Shown in pieces: positions 34,319-55,430 of a DNA stretch of 64,000 nucleotides. The stretch lies in NCBI RefSeq assembly GCF_001013475.1, contig NZ_JZEF01000003.1:310001-374000 (forward strand), given 5' to 3'. This DNA is from Xanthomonas arboricola pv. juglandis. Its GTDB lineage: Bacteria > Pseudomonadota > Gammaproteobacteria > Xanthomonadales > Xanthomonadaceae. Made by a program: the position numbers and the translations under genes. Position 1 is the stretch's first letter. The number at the start of each line of letters is the position of its first letter. The notes below the pieces were generated by a model. It was not told where the DNA came from. It saw only the letters and a list, made by a program, of their open reading frames with translations, and searched no databases.

Positions 34319-34547
34319 GCCCTGCAGCCAAGCCGCAACTCAGCGACCTGCCATGGACCGTCAAACCACTGCGCTCACCGTTGGTCGAGCGCGCAGGTGC
34401 CATCGCAGCGCTGGCCCGGTGGCGCGTCATCGCCGCCCATCGGCAAGTCCCCGCGTCGCCTCATGCCGCCATCGGTGACATGAACGGCATCGCTATACTT
34501 ACGTCCTCAGTCATCGGGTAGTGCGAATGGACAGCCGGGAATCAGGG

Positions 34548-37500
34548 ATGAAGTGGTCGGGCACGCGGCGCATGTTGCTGTGGGTGGTCTTGCTGGGCGT
34601 GGCGATCGGCGCGGTGGCGTGCAAGCGCAACGAAAGCGGCCAGCTGCCTGCCGCCACTGGCGAGGCGATCAAGGCCGACAAGCAGGCCATCACCGGTTTT
34701 GCGCTGGCGCGCGCCTATCCCGACCAGACCGGCGACGGCCTGTCGCTGGCGCTGGAATTCTCGCGGCCGTTGGTGGGCACGCAGGACTTCGATGCGCTGG
34801 TGCGTTTCGAGGAAAAGGTCGGCACCGGCGACAGCAGCTGGACGCTGTCCGACGACGGCAAGACGCTGCGCTACCCGTACGTGGAAGCGGCCAAGGACTA
34901 CACCGTGCTGGTCGACGCCAACCTGCTGGCCGCCGATGGCAGCCGCCTGGGCAAGCCGTTCAAGCAGAAGGTCTACACCGGCGCGCTCAAGCCAGTGGCC
35001 GGGTTCGCTTCGCAAGGCAGCGTGCTGCCGGCACGCGAGAGCCGCGGTCTGCCGGTGGTGTCGGTCAACGTGCCGGAAGTGGACGTGGAGTTCCTGCGCG
35101 TGCGCGAGAAGTCGCTGCCGGCGTTCTTCCAGCAGTTCCAGCGCGGCGGTCGTCGCGGCAGCTGGGAGCTGGAGAGCGAATATAACGACAAGCAGCCGTT
35201 GTCCAAGCTGGCTGACCCGGTCTACGTCAATCGTTTCATTCTCGGCGGCAAGCAGAACGAGCGCGTGCTGACCTACCTGCCCACGCAGGACATCAAGGAA
35301 CTGCAGGAGCCGGGCCTGTACTTTGCGGTGATGAAGCGTGCCGGCAGTTTCGACAATGGCTTCGACACCGCGTTCTTCACCGTCAGCGACATCGGCCTGC
35401 ACACGCGCGCCTACAAGGACAAGCTGTTCGTGCACACCGCCTCGCTGCAGAGCGGCGAGCCGATCAAGAACGTGGAAGTGCGCGTCCTCGATGCCAAGGG
35501 CGAGCTGTTCCTCAAGGGCGCCACCGACGGCAACGGCAATGCGCTGCTCAACTACACGCTCGATGCCGGCCACGTGCTGGTGGCGCGCAGCAAGACCGAT
35601 ATCTCGGTGCTGCCGTTCAACCAGCCGGCGCTGGATTTGAGCGAATTCGCAGTGGCCGGGCGCGAGAGCGCCTGGTTCGACGTGTTCGCCTGGGCCGGCC
35701 GCGACCTGTATCGCCCCGGCGAGACCATGCGCGTGTCGGCGATCCTGCGCGACAACGACGGCAAGCCGACCAAGCCGCAACCGGTATTCCTGCGCCTCAA
35801 GCAACCGGACGGCAAGACCTTCCGCGAGACCAAGCTGCAGCCGGGCGAGCAGGGCTATTTCGAGTTCAGCCAGCAGATTCCGGCCGATGCGCCGACCGGC
35901 CGCTGGCAGGTGGAATTCCGCACCGATCCGGCCAGCAAGGACGCCGTGCAGGGCATGACCGTGCGCGTGGAAGAGTTCCTGCCCGAGCGCATGAAGCTGG
36001 ATCTGGACAGCACCCAAAAGACCCTGAGCGCCGGCCAGCCGTTCACGCTGGTCGCCAATGCCGCGTATCTGTATGGCGCGCCGGCCGATGGCAACCGCTT
36101 CACCGCCAAGCTTGCGGTCAGCGTCGAGCAGCATCCGCTCGAGTCCTTGCCGGGCTGGTTCTTCGGCGACCCCACGCTGGAGCTCCCGCGCGACGCCAAG
36201 GACGTGATCGACACCGAGTTCGGCAGCGATGGCGTATTGCGCGAAGACATCGCGCTGCCTGCCGAAGCCAAGCCGGTCAGCACGATTGCGGCGGTGGTCT
36301 CGGGCAGTGTGTACGAGACCGGCGGGCGTACCGTCACCCGCAGCGTCAAGCGCGTGCTGTGGCCGGCCAAGGCGCTGGTCGGCGTGCGCCCCCTGTTCGA
36401 CGACAAGGACGGTACCGACGCCAACGGCACCGCGCGCTTCGAAATCACCCGCGTGGATGCCGATGGCAAGCCGCAACCGGCCAAGGGCCTGAAGGCCACG
36501 CTGGTGCGCGAGCTGCGCGACTACCACTGGAACTACACCGACGACCATTGGGATTACGACTTCACCCGCCGCTTCGAGAACAAGGACACGCGCACGCTCG
36601 ACATTGCCGGCGGCAACGCCAAGCTCGAGGTCCCGGTGGAGTGGGGCGAGTACCGCCTGGACGTGTTCGACCCGGCCACCGGGCTGACCACGCGCTACCC
36701 GTTTCGCGCCGGCTGGAGCTGGAACGACGAGAACCGCGGCCTGGATGCGCGCCCGGACAAGGTCAAGCTGGCCTTGGACAAGACCGCCTATCGCGCCGGC
36801 GACACGCTCACCGTCACGCTGACCCCGCCGCATGCCGGCAAGGGCGTGCTGCTGGTGGAAAGCGACAAGCTGCTGTACGTGCAGGACATCGACGTCAAGC
36901 CGGGCAGCAGCTTCGAAATCCCGGTGACCGACGCGTGGGAACGCCACGATGTCTACGTCACCGCGCTGGTGTTCCGCGGCGGCAGTGCGCCGAGCAAGAT
37001 CACCCCGGCGCGTGCGGTGGGTGTGGCGTATGTGCCGATGGACCGCAAGGCGCGACGCGTGGCGGTGGGCCTGGCTGTGCCCAAGCAGATGCGCCCCGAG
37101 CAGGCGTTGCCGGTGACGGTAAGCGTGCCCGAGCTGGCCGGCAAGGCGGCGCACGTGACCATCTCGGCGGTGGACGTGGGCATCCTCAACATCACCCGCT
37201 TCCCGGTGCCCGATGCCAACGCGCAGTTCTTCGCGCAGCGTCGTCTGGGCACCGATGCCTACGACATCTATGGCCGCGTGATCGAGAGCTTCGAAGGCGC
37301 CAGCGGCAAGCTCAAGTTCGGCGGCGACATGGCGCTGGAAGCCTTGCCGCAGGCCAAGCGCCCGACCGCGCGCGTGCAGACCGTGGACCTGTTCTCCGGC
37401 TCGGTGAAGCTCGATGCCAAGGGCAATGCGCGCGTGCAACTGCCGGTGCCGGATTTCAACGGCACGCTGCGGGTGTCGGCGTTGGTGTATTCGGATACGC

Positions 37501-39449
37501 GGTTCGGCAACCACGCGGTGGAAACCGTGGTGCGCGCCCCGATCCTGGCCGAGGCCAGCATGCCGCGCGTGATGGCGCCGGGCGACCGCAGCACGGTGAC
37601 GCTGGATGTGCAGAACTTCACCGGCAAACCGGGCGAGTTCAATGTGCGCGTGGACGGGATCGGCCCGCTGGCCATCGCCGAGGCGGCGCGCAGCGTCAAG
37701 CTTGGTGTGGATGCCAAGCAGACGCTGAGCTTCCCGCTGAGCGCCACCGAAGGCTATAGCGTGGCCAAGGTGCGCGTACGTGTGGACGGCAACGGCTTCA
37801 AGGCCGACCGCAGCTACGACCTGCCGGTGCGTGCGGGCTGGCCGCAGGTGTTGCGTGCGCAGACGCGCGTGCTTGATCCGCTGGCGCCGATCACCCTGGA
37901 CAGCGGCTTTGCCGATGGCCTGATGGCCGGCTCGGTGACCGCGCGCATGGTGGTCAGCCCGCTGCCGCCGATTCCGTTCGCCAGCGCCCTGCAGGGGGCG
38001 TTGGACTATCCGTATGGCTGCGCCGAGCAGACCACCAGCAAGGGCTACGCCGCACTCTTGCTCGACGATGCCACCGCCAGGGCGCTGGGCACCAAGGGGC
38101 TGGAGGCGGGCAAGCGCCGCGAGCGCATGGAAGGCGCATTCGGTCGCCTGGCCTCGATGCAGATCGCCAGCGGGCATTTTTCGATGTGGGGCGACGACGG
38201 GTACGTCAATCCGGGCCTGACCCCGTATATCGCCGAGTTCCTGCTCGACGCCAAGGACGCCGGTTTTGCGGTGCCCGACAACGTGCTGCAGAAGGCGCTC
38301 AATCGACTCAGCGAGGATCTGCTGTCCGGTGGCAACGAGTTCTACGGGCAGGATCGCCGCGATAGCCTGAAGTTCGCCAACCAGGCCTGGTCCGGCTATG
38401 TGCTGGCACGCGTCAACCGCGCCCCGCTGGGCACGCTGCGCGCGCTCTACGACAACCAGCGCGACAAGGCGCTGACTGGTTTGTCGCTGGTGCATCTGGG
38501 CGCGGCGTTGTCGCTGCAGGGCGACACCAAGCGTGGGCAGGCGGCGATCAAGGCCGGTTTTGCCAAGGACAGCAGCGAGCGCCCGCCGTACCTCGCCGAT
38601 TACGGCAGCGCGATCCGCGACGATGCCTTGATGATGGCGTTGCTGCACGAGCGTGGCTTGTCCAAGCCCGACTACGACACCCGCGCAGTGGCATTGGGCC
38701 GCGCGCTGGATGCACGCCGCGCCACCGGCTGGCTGTGGCTGAGCACGCAGGAGCAGGTGGCGCTGGCGCGCTTGGGCAAGGCCTTGATGGTCGGCCAGGG
38801 CAAGCAGGTGTCCGGCACCTTGACTGTTGGCGGCCAGACGCAGGAGATTGCGCCGGCACGCCTGTTCGGGCGCAGTTTCGACAGCGCCGCCCTGGCGCGC
38901 GGCGTGCAGTTCGCACCGCAGGGCGAGGCACCGATGTACGCCAGCCTGGAAGTGGCCGGCATCCCGCGCAGCGCACCGGAGCCGGACACGCGCAATCTCA
39001 GCGTGGAGCGCAGCTGGTACACCACCGACGGCAAACCCTGGACCCCGCGTGCATTGAAGGAAGGCGAAGCGCTGATCGTGCGCGTCACCATCACCGCCAA
39101 CAGCGACATGCCGGACGCGCTGCTGACCGACCTGTTGCCGGCCGGCCTGGAGATCGAGAACTTCAATCTCGGCGATGCCAAGCAATGGGCCGATGTGGTG
39201 GTGGACGGCATCGGCATCAGCGAGCGTTCCAGCGCCGCCGACGTCAAGCACGAAGAGTTCCGCGACGACCGCTATGTGGCCGCGCTGGCGCTGTCCTCGG
39301 GCAGCAAGGCGCAGCTGTATTACCTGGTGCGCGCAGTCACCCCGGGCACCTACACGGTGCCGCCATCGTTGGTGGAAGACATGTACCGCCCCGAGCTGCG
39401 CGGCGTGGGGCGCAGCACGCCAGCGACGCTGACGGTGGTGCAGCCGTAA
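34548..39449 (+). CDS. Bacterial alpha-2-macroglobulin lipoprotein with intact thioester motif
   Basis: About 1633 residues from ATG 34548 (GGGA seven bases upstream); ATG 34527 and GTG 34521 are alternatives. Signal peptide MKWSGTRRMLLWVVLLGVAI with lipobox ending in Cys25. Macroglobulin (MG) domains follow, including SDIGLHTRAYKDKLFVHTA and the bait-region area with VDLFSGSVKLDAKGNARVQLP. The thioester motif PYGCAEQTTS places Cys1158 and the Gln three residues on, so covalent trapping of proteases is possible; the all-alpha thioester domain follows. It corresponds to E. coli YfhM, usually encoded beside the PBP1C gene pbpC. Here pbpC lies about 6 kb further on in the same direction. Confidence 0.93.
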   Translation: MKWSGTRRMLLWVVLLGVAIGAVACKRNESGQLPAATGEAIKADKQAITGFALARAYPDQTGDGLSLALEFSRPLVGTQDFDALVRFEEKVGTGDSSWTLSDDGKTLRYPYVEAAKDYTVLVDANLLAADGSRLGKPFKQKVYTGALKPVAGFASQGSVLPARESRGLPVVSVNVPEVDVEFLRVREKSLPAFFQQFQRGGRRGSWELESEYNDKQPLSKLADPVYVNRFILGGKQNERVLTYLPTQDIKELQEPGLYFAVMKRAGSFDNGFDTAFFTVSDIGLHTRAYKDKLFVHTASLQSGEPIKNVEVRVLDAKGELFLKGATDGNGNALLNYTLDAGHVLVARSKTDISVLPFNQPALDLSEFAVAGRESAWFDVFAWAGRDLYRPGETMRVSAILRDNDGKPTKPQPVFLRLKQPDGKTFRETKLQPGEQGYFEFSQQIPADAPTGRWQVEFRTDPASKDAVQGMTVRVEEFLPERMKLDLDSTQKTLSAGQPFTLVANAAYLYGAPADGNRFTAKLAVSVEQHPLESLPGWFFGDPTLELPRDAKDVIDTEFGSDGVLREDIALPAEAKPVSTIAAVVSGSVYETGGRTVTRSVKRVLWPAKALVGVRPLFDDKDGTDANGTARFEITRVDADGKPQPAKGLKATLVRELRDYHWNYTDDHWDYDFTRRFENKDTRTLDIAGGNAKLEVPVEWGEYRLDVFDPATGLTTRYPFRAGWSWNDENRGLDARPDKVKLALDKTAYRAGDTLTVTLTPPHAGKGVLLVESDKLLYVQDIDVKPGSSFEIPVTDAWERHDVYVTALVFRGGSAPSKITPARAVGVAYVPMDRKARRVAVGLAVPKQMRPEQALPVTVSVPELAGKAAHVTISAVDVGILNITRFPVPDANAQFFAQRRLGTDAYDIYGRVIESFEGASGKLKFGGDMALEALPQAKRPTARVQTVDLFSGSVKLDAKGNARVQLPVPDFNGTLRVSALVYSDTRFGNHAVETVVRAPILAEASMPRVMAPGDRSTVTLDVQNFTGKPGEFNVRVDGIGPLAIAEAARSVKLGVDAKQTLSFPLSATEGYSVAKVRVRVDGNGFKADRSYDLPVRAGWPQVLRAQTRVLDPLAPITLDSGFADGLMAGSVTARMVVSPLPPIPFASALQGALDYPYGCAEQTTSKGYAALLLDDATARALGTKGLEAGKRRERMEGAFGRLASMQIASGHFSMWGDDGYVNPGLTPYIAEFLLDAKDAGFAVPDNVLQKALNRLSEDLLSGGNEFYGQDRRDSLKFANQAWSGYVLARVNRAPLGTLRALYDNQRDKALTGLSLVHLGAALSLQGDTKRGQAAIKAGFAKDSSERPPYLADYGSAIRDDALMMALLHERGLSKPDYDTRAVALGRALDARRATGWLWLSTQEQVALARLGKALMVGQGKQVSGTLTVGGQTQEIAPARLFGRSFDSAALARGVQFAPQGEAPMYASLEVAGIPRSAPEPDTRNLSVERSWYTTDGKPWTPRALKEGEALIVRVTITANSDMPDALLTDLLPAGLEIENFNLGDAKQWADVVVDGIGISERSSAADVKHEEFRDDRYVAALALSSGSKAQLYYLVRAVTPGTYTVPPSLVEDMYRPELRGVGRSTPATLTVVQP

Positions 39450-39458
39450 GGCGACAAG

Positions 39459-39526
39459 GTAGGAGCGCGCTCGCGCGCGATGGGGCTTTCCCGGTAACGC
39501 CCCATCGCGCGCAAGCGCGCTCCTAC
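39459..39526. repeat. REP palindrome 1 (left of RAYT-1)
   Basis: GTAGGAGCGCGCTCGCGCGCGA pairs with its complement TCGCGCGCAAGCGCGCTCCTAC across a ~24-base centre (nearly perfect 22-bp arms). It begins nine bases after the macroglobulin stop and lies left of the RAYT at 39601. Confidence 0.95.
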
Positions 39527-39600
39527 GTTCGGGGTTTTCTCACCGAAGCGAGTGTCCGACTCCGATGCAAGCGTTTGCGTGGCTGGGCCAGCATGCATCG

Positions 39601-40067
39601 ATGGTCAACTCTACTTCCGCAGGACATCGCGCGCTTCGTCGTGGCCGGCGCTCGCTGGCAGTTGCTGCTATCTCCTCACCGTAACAACCTGCCAGCGGCG
39701 ACGTGTATTCGACGATTTTCAGCTGGCCGCATCAGCATGCCGCGCGTTCATCGCCGCGCTGCCAGAAGATGCCACGTTACTTGCCTGGGTGCCGATGCCG
39801 GACCATGTCCACTGGCTGGTGCAGTTAGGCGATGTCACTCCGCTCGCGCGGACCGTGTCATGCATGAAGGCGGCAAGCACGCGTGCGGTCAACCAGCAAC
39901 GCAGGATGCCCGACGTGGTCTGGGCGCGGGCCTACCACGACCGCGGCCTGCGCAAGGACGACGATCTGCGCATCGTGGCTCGTTACCTGATCGCCAACCC
40001 GCTGCGCGCCGGGCTGGTCGAGCGGGTCGGCGACTATCCATTCCGGGATGCAATCTGGCTGCCGTAG
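39601..40067 (+). pseudogene. REP-associated tyrosine transposase (RAYT), N-terminal frameshift
   Basis: Translation from ATG 39601 gives MVNSTSAGHRALRRGRRS, which matches the start of the intact RAYT at 54966 (MANTNSPGHRALRRGRQS). The frame then runs to a stop (TAA at 39681), while the rest of the protein (YLLTVTTCQRRRVFDDF onwards) continues in another frame. Between the codon for GR and the YLLT tyrosine this copy has 20 bases and the other copy 21, so one base is missing. The downstream part has the HUH-type metal site MPDHVHWL and the catalytic-tyrosine region ARYLIANPLRAGLV. The stop codon lies inside the right REP. Either inactivated or started at an internal codon. Confidence 0.85.
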
Positions 40068-40131
40068 GAGCGCGCTTGCGCGCGATCGGGCGTCACCGGG
40101 AAAGCCCCATCGCGCGCAAGCGCGCTCCTAC
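40064..40131. repeat. REP palindrome 2 (right of RAYT-1)
   Basis: GTAGGAGCGCGCTTGCGCGCGAT pairs with ATCGCGCGCAAGCGCGCTCCTAC. Same family and same subtype (GCGCGC core) as REP 1; together they enclose RAYT-1, the arrangement of a REP-RAYT unit. Confidence 0.95.
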
Positions 40132-40275
40132 GCCAGCGCTTCTTCGCTTACGGCGACATCGTTGCGCACTGTCTTATCGATGAGATGCCAGCGACACGCA
40201 AGGGTCATTTTTGCTGGCTACGGTGGCGTGCTTTCTCACAGGCGCGGCATTCCCGCTGCGCGATCTCGGGATTCC

Positions 40276-43200
40276 ATGCAGCGCTCCGATTCGTACCGTT
40301 TGCACTTGTCCGCTCTCGCCGTTGCCATTGCGGCGTGTTCGCCAGCCTCGCAGGCATGCGCCCACGAGTGGGCGGCCAGTCCAGTCGACGCTTCAGCTCA
40401 AACGTCTGTTGCGGCCATGACCGCGACCGCGGGCGCATCAGCGAGCGCAGCTATAGCTACAGCTACAGCTACAGCTACAGCTCATAATGACCAGGCAACC
40501 ACACCCAAGGCCGAAGTTGCGACTGCAAGGCAACGTTCTTCATTGCCAGCAGATGCATCCGCTGATTCCATAGACCCTGCATCCCCTGCATCCCCTGCAT
40601 CCCCTGCATCCCCTGCATCGTCCACGTCGCCTGCAGCGCCCACGTTGCCTGCATCGGCACAAGGCGAGGCATCCAGTAGCGACGCATCGGCCACCACCAA
40701 AACCGGCGTGCAGACCCTCGATGCCATGCAGGTCACCGGCGTGCGCCGTGCCAATGCCGCCGCGGTGGAAAGCAAGCGCGCGGCAACCAATATCACCGAT
40801 GTGATCAGCGCCACCGATGTGCGCGCCTTGCCCGACAGCACCATCGTCGAAGCGCTGCGCCGCGTGCCCGGCCTGTCGGTATTGCCGGCCACCGACAACG
40901 AGCATCCGCGCGACGAGGCCGCCACCCCGGTCTTGCGCGGCCTGGGCCCGTCCTACAACAACGTCACCATCGATGGGCTGACCATTGCCTCGCCCGGCAC
41001 GCCGAACGGCACGCTTGGCTCGATCACCCGCGGGGTGCGTCTGGACCTGCTGCCGGCATCGATGGTCAGCGAGTTGCAGGTGGTCAAGACCTTCACACCC
41101 GACCTGGACCCCAACGCAACGGGCGGGGCGATCAACCTCAAGACGCGCAGCGCCTTCGAAAACGGCGGCAAGCCCTTCTTCAGTGCCGAAGCCGCGCTGG
41201 GCCACGCCAACGATGTCGGCAAGCCGCGCGACCAGGACGACCCCGGCTATCGCTTGAACGCCACCGGCAGCCGCACCTTCGGCAGCGAGCAGCAGTACGG
41301 GGTCACCCTGTCGGCCAACTACCAGACGCTGAGCAGCTACACCGAAACCCATATGACCACCGACACGGTGCATTACGGGTTCTACGACAACAACGGCGTG
41401 CTGCAGACCGGCGCCAACCTCGGCAATGGCTGGGCGGTGCCGCAGCAGGACAAGTACTGGTACGTGCAGAACCAGCGCGACCGCTATGGCGTCACCGGCA
41501 AGTTCGAAGTGCATCCCAGTGCCGCGCTCGAAGCCTATGCGACGGCCGGCTACTACTATTTCAAGGACAATATGGAGCGCAACGAGGTCCTCATCGACCC
41601 GCGCAACCGTGGCCAGGTGTTCAATCAGACCGCCACCTCCGGCAGCTATCCCGGCGGCGACATCGAGGTGGGCTATTCCAACCAGATCGTCACCACGCGC
41701 ACCAAGGTCGCGCAGCTGGGCACGATCTGGCGGCCGACCGATCGGCAACAGTTTTCCGCGCGCGGCGCGTGGTCGGACGCGACCTACGACGAGCCGATCC
41801 GCATGATCAAGTACGCCACCGGCATCACCCGCGCCGCACCGGTAGCGCTGGGCCAGACCGGCAGCGGTGTGACCATCAATGCCACGCCCAACTACGCATT
41901 CAACTACGACACCTCCGGCTTCGATCAGCGCTTCGGGGTGTCGCCGCAGGCCTACAACGACCTGGGCAACTACAGCCTGTCGTACTGGCGCCCGGACTAC
42001 AAACGCACTGCGGCCGATCGCATCCTCACCGGCCGGCTGGATTACGGTTTCAACCAGGGCGAGAGCGATCAGGGGATCGGCTTTGCCGCAGGCGTGTCGT
42101 ACACCACCGACAAACCGTCCTACGACATCTATCGCGTCGAGTATCAGCCCAATACCAGTGCGCCGGCGTTTGGCTTGGCCGATGTTGCGGGTACCGGCCG
42201 GGCGCCGATGCGCTACGCCGGTTTGAACCTGATCACCATCGATCCAGACAAGGCCAATCGCGCATTGGCTGCAACGCCACTGAGCGCGTTCAACAGCACC
42301 GACCAGCAGGCCTTCAGCAATCAGGACAACTTCACCCATACCGAAAAGACCTTCGGCAGCTATGGCCTGGTCAGCTACCGCAGCGAGCGTTTCAATGTGC
42401 AGGGCGGCCTGCATTTCGACAGCACCAGGCTCGATACGGTGGGTCGCCAGCGGCAGCTGGATGCCGCGACCAACCGCTATGTGTATGTCGATAACCCGAC
42501 CAGTGCCGATTACCACTATCTGCTGCCCTCGGCCATCATGACCTACCACCTGACCGATGCACTGGACCTGCGCGCCGGCGCAAGCCGTACGCTCGGCCGC
42601 CCGCCATACGATGCGTATGCGGCGCGCACCTCGATCGGCTTCGTCAACACGGCCGATGCCGGCAACCCGAATGCGCAAGGCGTCACCGTCACCATCGGCA
42701 ACCCGGACATCAAGCCGCGCGTGTCCAATAACCTGGATCTGTCGCTGGAATGGCGCCTGCCTGGCGATTTCGACGCGTTCGCGTCCACGGCCGTGTTCGA
42801 CAAGCGCATCCAGGACGAGATCTTTACGCTTTCGCGCACCGACAGCTTCACGTTCGACGGCACCACTTACGCCAACGCGCTGATCAGCACGCCGGCCAAT
42901 GCCGCCAAGGCGCGTATCCGCGGGGTGGAGTTCAACGGCATCGTCAACAACCTGGCGCCGATCGCGCCGTGGCTGAGTGGGGTCGGTTTCAGTGCAAATT
43001 TTGCGGTGCTCGATGGCAGCCTGGATGTGCCCTACAGCGTTGGCAGCGGCAGCAATGTGAGCCAGCGCGAGCGCAAGCTCGACAACCTGGTCGGGCAGCC
43101 CGACTACACCGCCAACGCCACGCTGTTCTACAACACCGGCGGGCTGGAGCTGCGCGCGGCCTACAATCGTCAGGGCAAGGCCTTGCGTGCCATCGTCAGC

Positions 43201-43419
43201 AATATCGATTGGCAGGACCTGTATTGGTCGCCGCGTTCGCAGCTGGATTTCACCGCGACCTATGCGATCAGCAAACAGCTCAGCCTGATCGGCCAGGTCA
43301 GCAACCTCACCCACAGCCGCATCACCAGCGTGACCGGCCCCGGGCAGAACCTGCTCAAGGACAGTTATTCGGTACCCACGACGTATTGGTTCGGTCTGCG
43401 CTTTACGCCGACGTTCTAG
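40276..43419 (+). CDS. TonB-dependent receptor (TonB-Xanth-Caul type) with repetitive N-terminal linker
   Basis: 1047 residues from ATG 40276. After a signal-like start (MQRSDSYRLHLSALAVAIAA) comes a ~120-residue low-complexity segment with ATATATAT and SPASPASPAS repeats, then the plug: KRAATNITDVISATDVRALP, VEALRRVPGLSVLPA, VLRGLGPSYNNVTIDGLTIA and VKTFTPDLDPNATGGAINL, the pattern of the large receptor family expanded in Xanthomonas and Caulobacter. The barrel ends TYWFGLRFTPTF. An exported glycerophosphodiesterase gene follows, hinting at phosphate or glycerophosphodiester uptake. The repeats would vary linker length without breaking frame. Confidence 0.92.
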   Translation: MQRSDSYRLHLSALAVAIAACSPASQACAHEWAASPVDASAQTSVAAMTATAGASASAAIATATATATAHNDQATTPKAEVATARQRSSLPADASADSIDPASPASPASPASPASSTSPAAPTLPASAQGEASSSDASATTKTGVQTLDAMQVTGVRRANAAAVESKRAATNITDVISATDVRALPDSTIVEALRRVPGLSVLPATDNEHPRDEAATPVLRGLGPSYNNVTIDGLTIASPGTPNGTLGSITRGVRLDLLPASMVSELQVVKTFTPDLDPNATGGAINLKTRSAFENGGKPFFSAEAALGHANDVGKPRDQDDPGYRLNATGSRTFGSEQQYGVTLSANYQTLSSYTETHMTTDTVHYGFYDNNGVLQTGANLGNGWAVPQQDKYWYVQNQRDRYGVTGKFEVHPSAALEAYATAGYYYFKDNMERNEVLIDPRNRGQVFNQTATSGSYPGGDIEVGYSNQIVTTRTKVAQLGTIWRPTDRQQFSARGAWSDATYDEPIRMIKYATGITRAAPVALGQTGSGVTINATPNYAFNYDTSGFDQRFGVSPQAYNDLGNYSLSYWRPDYKRTAADRILTGRLDYGFNQGESDQGIGFAAGVSYTTDKPSYDIYRVEYQPNTSAPAFGLADVAGTGRAPMRYAGLNLITIDPDKANRALAATPLSAFNSTDQQAFSNQDNFTHTEKTFGSYGLVSYRSERFNVQGGLHFDSTRLDTVGRQRQLDAATNRYVYVDNPTSADYHYLLPSAIMTYHLTDALDLRAGASRTLGRPPYDAYAARTSIGFVNTADAGNPNAQGVTVTIGNPDIKPRVSNNLDLSLEWRLPGDFDAFASTAVFDKRIQDEIFTLSRTDSFTFDGTTYANALISTPANAAKARIRGVEFNGIVNNLAPIAPWLSGVGFSANFAVLDGSLDVPYSVGSGSNVSQRERKLDNLVGQPDYTANATLFYNTGGLELRAAYNRQGKALRAIVSNIDWQDLYWSPRSQLDFTATYAISKQLSLIGQVSNLTHSRITSVTGPGQNLLKDSYSVPTTYWFGLRFTPTF
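40449..40482 (+). repeat. Hexamer microsatellite AGCTAC inside TonB receptor gene
   Basis: AGCTAT then four AGCTAC units and AGCTCA encode alternating Ala-Thr. Unit length is a multiple of three, so slippage changes only linker length. Confidence 0.9.
40575..40619 (+). repeat. Five tandem CCCTGCATC nonamers inside TonB receptor gene
   Basis: Five exact nine-base copies encode Pro-Ala-Ser repeats in the periplasmic linker before the plug domain. In-frame variation is expected. Confidence 0.95.
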
Positions 43420-54965: not shown

Positions 54966-55430
54966 ATGGCCAACACCAACTCTCCAGGGCATCGCGCGCT
55001 GCGCCGCGGTAGGCAGTCTTCGCCCAACAGCGTTTACCTGCTGACCACCACGACATGGCGGCGTCGCGCCGTATTCGCAGATTTTCTGCTTGCAGCAACC
55101 GCCTGCCGGGCATTCACCGCAGCAACGCCTCGCGATGCCAGGCTGCTGGCCTGGGTGTTGATGCCGGATCATGCACATTGGCTGTTGCAGCTGGGGAGCG
55201 TCACCTCGTTGGCCGACGCCGTGTCCCGCATGAAAGCGTGCGCAGCGCGTTCGGTGAACGATCAGCGGCAGCATCACGCACCGGTCTGGAGCCGCAGCTA
55301 CCACGACCACGCGTTGCGCAAAGACGACGACCTGCACGCAGCCGCGCGTTACCTCATCGCCAATCCACTCCGGGGCGGGCTGGTCACCCACATCGGTGAT
55401 TATCCGTTCTGGGACGCGATCTGGCTCTGA
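54966..55430 (+). CDS. REP-associated tyrosine transposase (RAYT)
   Basis: 154 residues from ATG 54966 (MANTNSPGHRALRRGRQSSP). The IS200/IS605-like Y1 transposase fold is seen in NSVYLLTTTTWRRRAVFADF, the metal-binding HUH motif LMPDHAHWLLQL and the tyrosine helix AARYLIANPLRGGLV. RAYTs nick single-stranded REP sequences and are thought to spread REP elements; they are domesticated, usually single copy. Two members are found here. Surrounded by REPs 4-8, it is intact, unlike the copy at 39601. Confidence 0.93.
   Translation: MANTNSPGHRALRRGRQSSPNSVYLLTTTTWRRRAVFADFLLAATACRAFTAATPRDARLLAWVLMPDHAHWLLQLGSVTSLADAVSRMKACAARSVNDQRQHHAPVWSRSYHDHALRKDDDLHAAARYLIANPLRGGLVTHIGDYPFWDAIWL

What the first reader, a model, noticed from the sequence alone, without database searches (positions are those of the whole stretch)
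39459..40131. RAYT transposase boxed between two REP palindromes, with a one-base frameshift near its N-terminus
Seen: the sequences at 39459-39526 and 40064-40131 are the same palindrome subtype, and the HUH-tyrosine transposase lies exactly between them with its stop codon inside the right palindrome. Compared with the intact copy at 54966, the segment between the conserved GR and Tyr codons is 20 instead of 21 bases, so the N-terminal MVNSTSAGHRALRRGRRS frame is cut off. Known: RAYTs and REPs are thought to form non-autonomous mobile units. Inference: this may be a captured snapshot of a REP-RAYT unit after insertion, now decaying, or one relying on frameshifting or an internal start.
Basis: partly seen in the sequence, partly recalled or inferred. 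Interest (0 to 1): 0.75.

Follow-up and report, generated by a model that had tools for sequence, protein, structure and literature searches.

The report
Old RAYT gene between REP repeats
A Xanthomonas chromosome carries a known type of tamed transposase gene between two copies of its own DNA repeat; its first codons are out of frame in this species and one relative, yet the rest of the gene still looks protected by selection, so it is an ordinary locus with one modest puzzle.

Summary
A RAYT (REP-associated tyrosine transposase) core lies between two 69-nt REPINs; its stop codon is the TAG of the right REPIN's GTAG head, and its N-terminal segment is one base short. This arrangement and REP type were described for Xanthomonas in 2010. 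The "snapshot after insertion" reading fails: in all 11 of 35 Xanthomonas genomes with this RAYT it sits at one site, between an alpha-2-macroglobulin-like and a TonB-receptor-like gene, with REPINs, and no second location was found. Two genomes hold deletion remnants, 15 another dispersed repeat, 4 neither; 3 gave no match to the upstream gene. The frameshift is unlikely to be a sequencing error: X. arboricola pv. guizotiae has the same short segment, while 9 of 9 other orthologues are one base longer. Between the two carriers the 132-codon core shows dN/dS 0.24, with fewer replacements than random placement gives (p 0.004-0.007); intact RAYT2 gives 0.22 over the whole gene, about 0.14 over the same core. 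Cognate REP copies stay mostly exact in both. Best reading: a domesticated locus, exchanged between species by recombination, whose core was still used after the shift, perhaps from a GTG at 39579. In this genome decay may be starting.

The parts
39459..39527 (.). left REPIN (two inverted GTAG-headed REPs); 9 nt lie between it and the stop codon of the upstream gene
   Evidence: present in 11 of 11 RAYT1 genomes (cut by N in G002) and in remnants G009 and G047
39579..40067 (+). RAYT core frame with the only ATG/GTG/TTG (GTG 39579) that both frameshift carriers share upstream of the tyrosine codon at 39669; the frame is open 57 codons upstream of that codon
   Evidence: Pfam Y1_Tnp and NF047646 hits for the ORF read from GTG 39552; use of the start at 39579 is inferred, no Shine-Dalgarno-like motif found
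39601..39684 (+). N-terminal segment of RAYT1 from the ordinary ATG, ending in TAA after 27 codons because of the one-base-short segment
40065..40067 (+). RAYT stop codon TAG = last three bases of the right REPIN's GTAG head
   Evidence: 11 of 11 orthologues
40064..40132 (.). right REPIN
34521..39449 (+). upstream neighbour: large ORF, alpha-2-macroglobulin-like lipoprotein gene (name from recall, no family search run), used as left anchor of the site
   Evidence: its 3' part matched in 32 of 35 genomes
40276..43419 (+). downstream neighbour: TonB-dependent-receptor-like gene (name from recall, no family search run); listed ORF starts at 40048 but the ATG at 40276 is kept in several relatives by eye
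54966..55430 (+). second, intact RAYT (RAYT2, 67% identical over the matched part) with its own REP type nearby

Best explanation
This is an old, single-copy, domesticated RAYT locus (RAYT1), not a fresh insertion. The protein belongs to the HUH/tyrosine single-strand DNA nucleases of the TnpA-REP kind, and its cognate REPINs bound the gene and supply its stop codon (shown by sequence). The locus stays at one chromosomal place; its presence and its alleles change between species by recombination and deletion rather than by transposition of the gene (tree conflict, mosaic identity and deletion remnants are shown; the mechanism is inferred). Before the split of this species and X. arboricola pv. 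guizotiae one base was lost near the N-terminus, putting the arginine-rich N-terminal extension out of frame while leaving the first strand, the HUH motif, the tyrosine and the C-terminus in one open frame (the shared short segment is shown; single origin and direction are inferred). That core shows purifying selection between the two carriers (shown for the pair), so it was most likely still translated without the normal N-terminus, the best candidate start being the shared GTG at 39579 (inferred), and kept its REPIN population mostly exact (correlation). In this genome the core has collected replacements at conserved sites, so it may now be losing function (inferred).
For: Family: NF047646 above cut-off, Pfam Y1_Tnp, solved TnpArep 4er8 first by profile (E 6.7e-13). 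Same site in 11 of 11 RAYT1 genomes out of 35 searched. Same one-base-short segment in G000 and G041, 9 of 9 others longer. Core dN/dS 0.24 for G000-G041 (11 silent, 8 replacement); intact RAYT2 in the same pair 0.22 over the whole gene; same changes placed at random, p 0.004 and 0.007, simpler binomial p 0.014. REP1 exact copies: RAYT1-positive median 32 (n 11), negative median 2 (n 24), p 2e-5. Exact share of copies 0.88 (G000) and 0.91 (G041) against 0.55 in close relative G009, which lost the gene. RAYT1 tree rejects three groupings expected from the species tree, AU p 1.0e-6, 9.5e-8, 8.7e-7. No heptameric slip site in register and no run of 4 or more in the overlap.
Against: No expression data. 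No start codon with a Shine-Dalgarno-like motif in the core frame, though by eye the ordinary ATG has none either. Over the same 132-codon core intact RAYT2 shows a lower ratio (7 silent, 3 replacement, about 0.14) than the shifted gene. G000 alone carries 4 replacement and 1 silent change at sites where the other ten agree, one of them at a nearly invariant family column and one beside the HUH motif; the selection signal may come mainly from the G041 lineage (0 unique replacements). If the two taxa lost the base independently after their split, the selection test says little. Exact share is not a clean marker: RAYT1-bearing G002 (0.57), G049 (0.62) and G017 (0.70) lie below RAYT1-less G048 (0.79) and G020 (0.72). 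The REP correlation is confounded by ancestry: of 6 independent pairs 4.4 on average go with it and 0 against at a cut of 17 copies (median p 0.125), 3.1 and 0 at a cut of 5 (median p 0.25). REP2 counts also follow RAYT1 (p 0.003), a sign of that confounding. The AU groups come from the species and flank trees but were tested after a first RAYT1 tree had been seen.
Confidence: 0.55

Rival explanations
1. Plain pseudogene: the frameshift killed the gene and it is decaying; the REPIN copies are leftovers.
For: N-terminal extension out of frame in both carriers; four replacements unique to G000, one at a nearly invariant column and one beside the HUH motif; pseudogenised RAYTs with frameshifts are known in Pseudomonas and Stenotrophomonas (PMC3686654, passages); G008 has an in-frame stop, and G047 and G009 hold deletions.
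Against: dN/dS 0.24 between the two carriers, null p 0.004-0.007; core frame fully open in both; REP1 exact share in both carriers (0.88, 0.91) is among the highest of the 20 genomes compared.
Confidence: 0.35
2. Captured snapshot of a REP-RAYT-REP unit that recently transposed into this site.
For: Its ends are REPINs, and 19 of the 32 genomes whose upstream gene was matched have neither RAYT1 nor a remnant there.
Against: Same site in 11 of 11 carriers, no second location in 35 genomes, some of them drafts; dS among carriers up to about 0.5; Nunvar 2010 reports no IS-like mobility of RAYTs (PMC2817692, passages); of the 24 genomes without the full gene 15 hold another repeat and 2 hold remnants; only G024, the most distant, shows a short spacer with neither repeat.
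Confidence: 0.03
3. Programmed -1 frameshifting makes the full-length protein, as in several insertion sequences.
For: The direction needed (-1) is a usual one for insertion sequences (recalled), and the two frames overlap for 84 nt from the ATG to the TAA.
Against: No X-XXY-YYZ heptamer in register and no homopolymer of 4 or more in the overlap; 9 of 9 other orthologues have the longer segment and need none.
Confidence: 0.04
4. Sequencing or assembly error in this genome.
For: Single-base indels are common assembly errors; the reads were not available.
Against: A separate genome (X. arboricola pv. guizotiae CFBP 7408, locus L072, handle G041) has the same short segment, with other differences around it.
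Confidence: 0.03

Closest known systems
Xanthomonas RAYTs Xcam (NP_636415) and Xaxo (NP_641493) of Nunvar et al. 2010 (PMC2817692)
   Same: The paper's table pairs Xcam with the REP type that flanks RAYT1 here and Xaxo with the REP type around RAYT2 here; RAYT genes flanked by two inverted REPs; REPs very close to the rayt stop; 3' rayt fragments built into repeat clusters, as in G014 and G042 here (passages and section 6 seen)
Frameshifted and lost RAYTs with decaying REPs in Pseudomonas and Stenotrophomonas, Nunvar et al. 2013 (PMC3686654)
   Same: RAYTs with frameshift or nonsense mutations or deletions, uneven REP counts, REP decay proposed after RAYT loss, horizontal transfer suspected (passages seen)
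   Different: Here the broken gene shows a low dN/dS between two carriers of the break
E. coli TnpA-REP (PDB 4er8) and the group 3 enzymes of Corneloup et al. 2021 (PMC8266576)
   Same: HUH region and tyrosine region aligned by profile; the paper notes extra N-terminal residues in group 3 (abstract, outline and part 1 of the Discussion seen)
   Different: Low sequence similarity; the frameshift removes an N-terminal extension; assignment to group 3 was not tested here
IS200/IS605 transposases
   Same: Same Y1/HUH superfamily
   Different: NF033573 below cut-off; no multiple copies, no change of location

Membership tests
RAYT / TnpA-REP | Y1 transposase domain of the REP-associated subfamily | tested here: met
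   NF047646 114.9 bits against cut-off 80 for the ORF holding the core, 132.8 for RAYT2; PF01797 32 bits against 23
RAYT / TnpA-REP | HUH motif and C-terminal catalytic tyrosine present | tested here: met
   Invariant His-x-His and Tyr columns of A1 present in the window core; which tyrosine is catalytic is taken from the known family
[quoted passage not shown]
   96% complementary 69-nt arms at 39459 and 40063; REPINs on both sides in 11 of 11 orthologues (some cut by N in G002 and G013)
RAYT / TnpA-REP | cognate REPs dispersed in the genome | tested here: met
   21 exact copies here, control 0
RAYT / TnpA-REP | complete reading frame including the N-terminal extension | tested here: not met
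   68 against 69 nt, ordinary frame stops after 27 codons; so this copy is filed as a broken or re-started family member
RAYT / TnpA-REP | cleavage and strand transfer on single-stranded REP | not testable with these tools
   needs biochemistry
autonomous insertion sequence (IS200/IS605) | multiple copies or changes of location | tested here: not met
   one RAYT1 locus per genome, same site in 11 of 11; local tandem fragments in G013, G014, G042
programmed ribosomal frameshift gene | slippery heptamer in register in the overlap | tested here: not met

The most novel reading that the evidence does not exclude
Loss of the normal N-terminus did not end this RAYT: in the common ancestor of two Xanthomonas taxa the catalytic core was re-started from an upstream GTG and went on maintaining its REPINs, so the arginine-rich N-terminal extension is dispensable or replaceable in this branch of RAYTs.
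Probability: 0.3. Interest if true: 0.45.

Novelty: new member of a known kind. Interest (0 to 1): 0.3.

Why it matters
The site is a natural ladder of RAYT states within one genus: intact, N-terminally shifted, stop, partial deletion, absent. The cognate repeat can be counted in each, which makes the idea that REPIN populations need their RAYT testable by comparison. The shifted core with signs of preserved selection asks which part of a RAYT is needed. Beyond that the locus is ordinary.

Tried and rejected
Recent insertion: rejected by the shared site in 11 of 11 carriers. Programmed slip: no motif. Sequencing error: made unlikely by G041. Re-initiation after the TAA of the short frame: the next ATG/GTG/TTG in the core frame lies 40 codons past the tyrosine codon in G000 and 12 past it in G041, too late to keep the fold's first strand. 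A2M-based tree as species tree: given up because G002 is mosaic there; replaced by gyrB plus rpoB. Clean empty site: looked for by eye and BLAST in the genomes without RAYT1; 15 hold another dispersed repeat instead, G024 comes nearest to empty. Structure prediction could not be run. Rows dropped: 3 of 35 genomes gave no match to the upstream gene; the exact-share comparison used the 20 of 35 genomes with at least 8 copies; G044 (RAYT2 in two pieces) was left out of the RAYT2 count; for G013 and G042, which hold partial extra copies, one main copy each was used; alignment A1 holds 21 rows chosen from the window and the 31 loci, after L083, L088, L089 and L095 (given) were left out.

Full report
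What is there. The block at 39459-40132 is REPIN - RAYT - REPIN. Each flank is a full REPIN, i.e. two inverted REPs with GTAG heads, not a single REP. The flanks are 90% alike in direct and 96% in inverted register. The ORF that holds the core hits NCBIfam NF047646 REP-associated tyrosine transposase above its cut-off and Pfam Y1_Tnp. A profile of the family finds TnpArep 4er8 first in the PDB (E 6.7e-13). The stop codon TAG is the tail of the right REPIN's GTAG in 11 of 11 orthologues. The genome holds three RAYT-type matches: this one (RAYT1), RAYT2 at 54966 (67% over the matched part) and a third at 37% to RAYT2.

Where it occurs. Of the 35, 11 have RAYT1 at 85% identity or more, 15 have an unbroken RAYT2-type match, and one (G044) has RAYT2 in two pieces. 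All 35 have a more distant match at about 35-39% identity, that of G049 partial and holding a stop. RAYT1 lies downstream of the same A2M-like gene in 11 of 11. Named relatives with it include X. arboricola pv. guizotiae, X. hortorum, X. pisi, X. arboricola NL_P126 and X. sp. Leaf148. At this site 2 further genomes hold remnants, read by eye and BLAST: G047 has the left REPIN, the 5' third of the gene and part of a right REP; G009 has the left REPIN, the leader and the first codons. Fifteen hold copies, some partial, of another palindromic repeat; four gave neither by BLAST in the stretch read (1.5 kb past the upstream gene); three gave no match to the upstream gene. No genome showed both RAYT1 and the other repeat at the site. 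That repeat is dispersed in all 35 genomes (2 to 50 matches with up to 3 mismatches).

History of the block. On a gyrB+rpoB tree of 35 genomes RAYT1 needs 7 changes of state. The RAYT1 tree (11 rows) joins G002 and G049 with G000 and G041, and G013 and G008 with G042 and G014; three groupings expected from the species tree are rejected (AU p 1.0e-6, 9.5e-8, 8.7e-7; a first RAYT1 tree had been seen before). G002 is mosaic against this genome: 0.97 in the A2M gene at 36500-37299, 0.86-0.90 at 37300-39449, 0.92 in the RAYT core, 0.96-0.98 in the TonB gene at 40690-43000, with 0.956 over gyrB+rpoB. So alleles of the region seem to pass between species by recombination, while the gene does not change place. 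Block-less G001 is closest to RAYT1-bearing G008 on both flanks (0.987 and 0.926), so no long foreign tract is visible there.

The frameshift. The distance from the ordinary ATG to the first-strand tyrosine codon is 68 nt in G000 and G041 and 69 in the other nine. The two short ones come from separate genomes and differ around the place, so the state is probably real and inherited; a single origin is inferred, not proven. The ordinary frame ends after 27 codons. The core frame is open 57 (G000) and 69 (G041) codons upstream of the tyrosine codon, and the two share one ATG/GTG/TTG there, GTG at 39579. It has no Shine-Dalgarno-like motif in that scan; by eye the ordinary ATG has none either. No slippery heptamer in register and no run of four was found in the overlap.

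Selection after the shift. Over 132 core codons G000 and G041 differ by 11 silent and 8 replacement changes, dN/dS 0.24. Intact RAYT2 in the same pair gives 0.22 over 154 codons, and 7 silent, 3 replacement, about 0.14, over the same core. Putting the same 19 changes at random places gives 13.5 replacements on average, and 8 or fewer in 0.35% and 0.7% of 4000 draws each way; a simpler binomial gives 0.014. Other RAYT1 pairs, G008 left out, have median 0.17, range 0.09-1.02, n 28. Against this, changes unique to G000 are 4 replacement and 1 silent, those unique to G041 0 and 1. One of the G000 replacements falls at a nearly invariant column of the wider alignment, another next to the HUH motif at a column that otherwise holds two similar residues. 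Some intact orthologues have similar unique-change ratios (G017 5:0, G046 3:0), so that count alone shows no decay.

Repeats and gene. Exact REP1 copies: RAYT1-positive 5-87, median 32, n 11; negative 0-18, median 2, n 24; p 2e-5. The share of exact among exact plus one-mismatch copies is 0.88 in G000, 0.91 in G041 and 0.55 in G009; positives against negatives p 0.0014 in the 20 genomes with 8 copies or more, with overlap: positives G017 0.70, G049 0.62 and G002 0.57 lie below negatives G048 0.79 and G020 0.72. Corrected for ancestry, 6 independent pairs go 4.4 with and 0 against on average at a cut of 17 copies (median p 0.125), 3.1 with and 0 against at a cut of 5 (median p 0.25). REP2 counts follow RAYT2 (p 0.0002) but also RAYT1 (p 0.003); REP1 counts do not follow RAYT2 (p 0.17). 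The pattern agrees with published work: RAYT-bearing E. coli have more REPINs (PMC8049555, passages), and REPs are proposed to decay after RAYT loss (PMC3686654, passages).

Known or new. Nunvar et al. 2010 already list Xanthomonas RAYTs with these two REP types, the inverted flanking REPs, REPs close to the stop codon, 3' rayt pieces inside repeat clusters, and no sign of IS-like mobility (PMC2817692, passages and section 6). Frameshifted RAYTs are reported in 2013 (PMC3686654, passages). Searches of the held library for RAYT with Xanthomonas, with REPIN, with frameshift and with alternative start showed in their listings no paper on a shifted RAYT kept under selection; of the listed papers four were opened, none read whole. 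The finding is a new member of a known kind, with one modest open question.

Noticed in passing
site 39450-40270 and the same site in L038, L041, L014-L021, L024, L026, L107, L115, L120: In 15 of 35 Xanthomonas genomes the same intergenic site holds copies, some partial, of another dispersed palindromic repeat instead of the REPIN-RAYT-REPIN block; the two were not found together at the site. The repeat occurs in all 35 genomes.
   Followed up: partly
L036 (G013), L039 (G014), L125 (G042), L124 (G049): Tandem arrays of REPINs, in the first three with 5' or 3' RAYT fragments, built out from the block, as described for BIMEs by Nunvar 2010.
   Followed up: partly
L037:1073-6028 and L034:1308-7839: In G021 and G004 about 5 and 6.5 kb sit at this site; L037 holds three ORFs of about 300 aa, by eye alike, the first of which is closely matched in G004. 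The region attracts variation.
   Followed up: no
L035 (G009) and L107 (G043): Both appear to have lost much of the downstream TonB-receptor-like gene: no match to its start in 10.9 kb of G009, and only an inner piece seen by eye in G043; in G009 the break lies just inside the RAYT start.
   Followed up: no
window 40448-40619: Short tandem repeats (CTACAG-like and a 9-nt unit) in the N-terminal coding region of the TonB-receptor-like gene, among the most variable parts of the flank.
   Followed up: no
L100 (X. dyei, same coordinates as G044): RAYT2 matches there in two pieces in different frames, the second with a stop: another broken RAYT in the genus.
   Followed up: no
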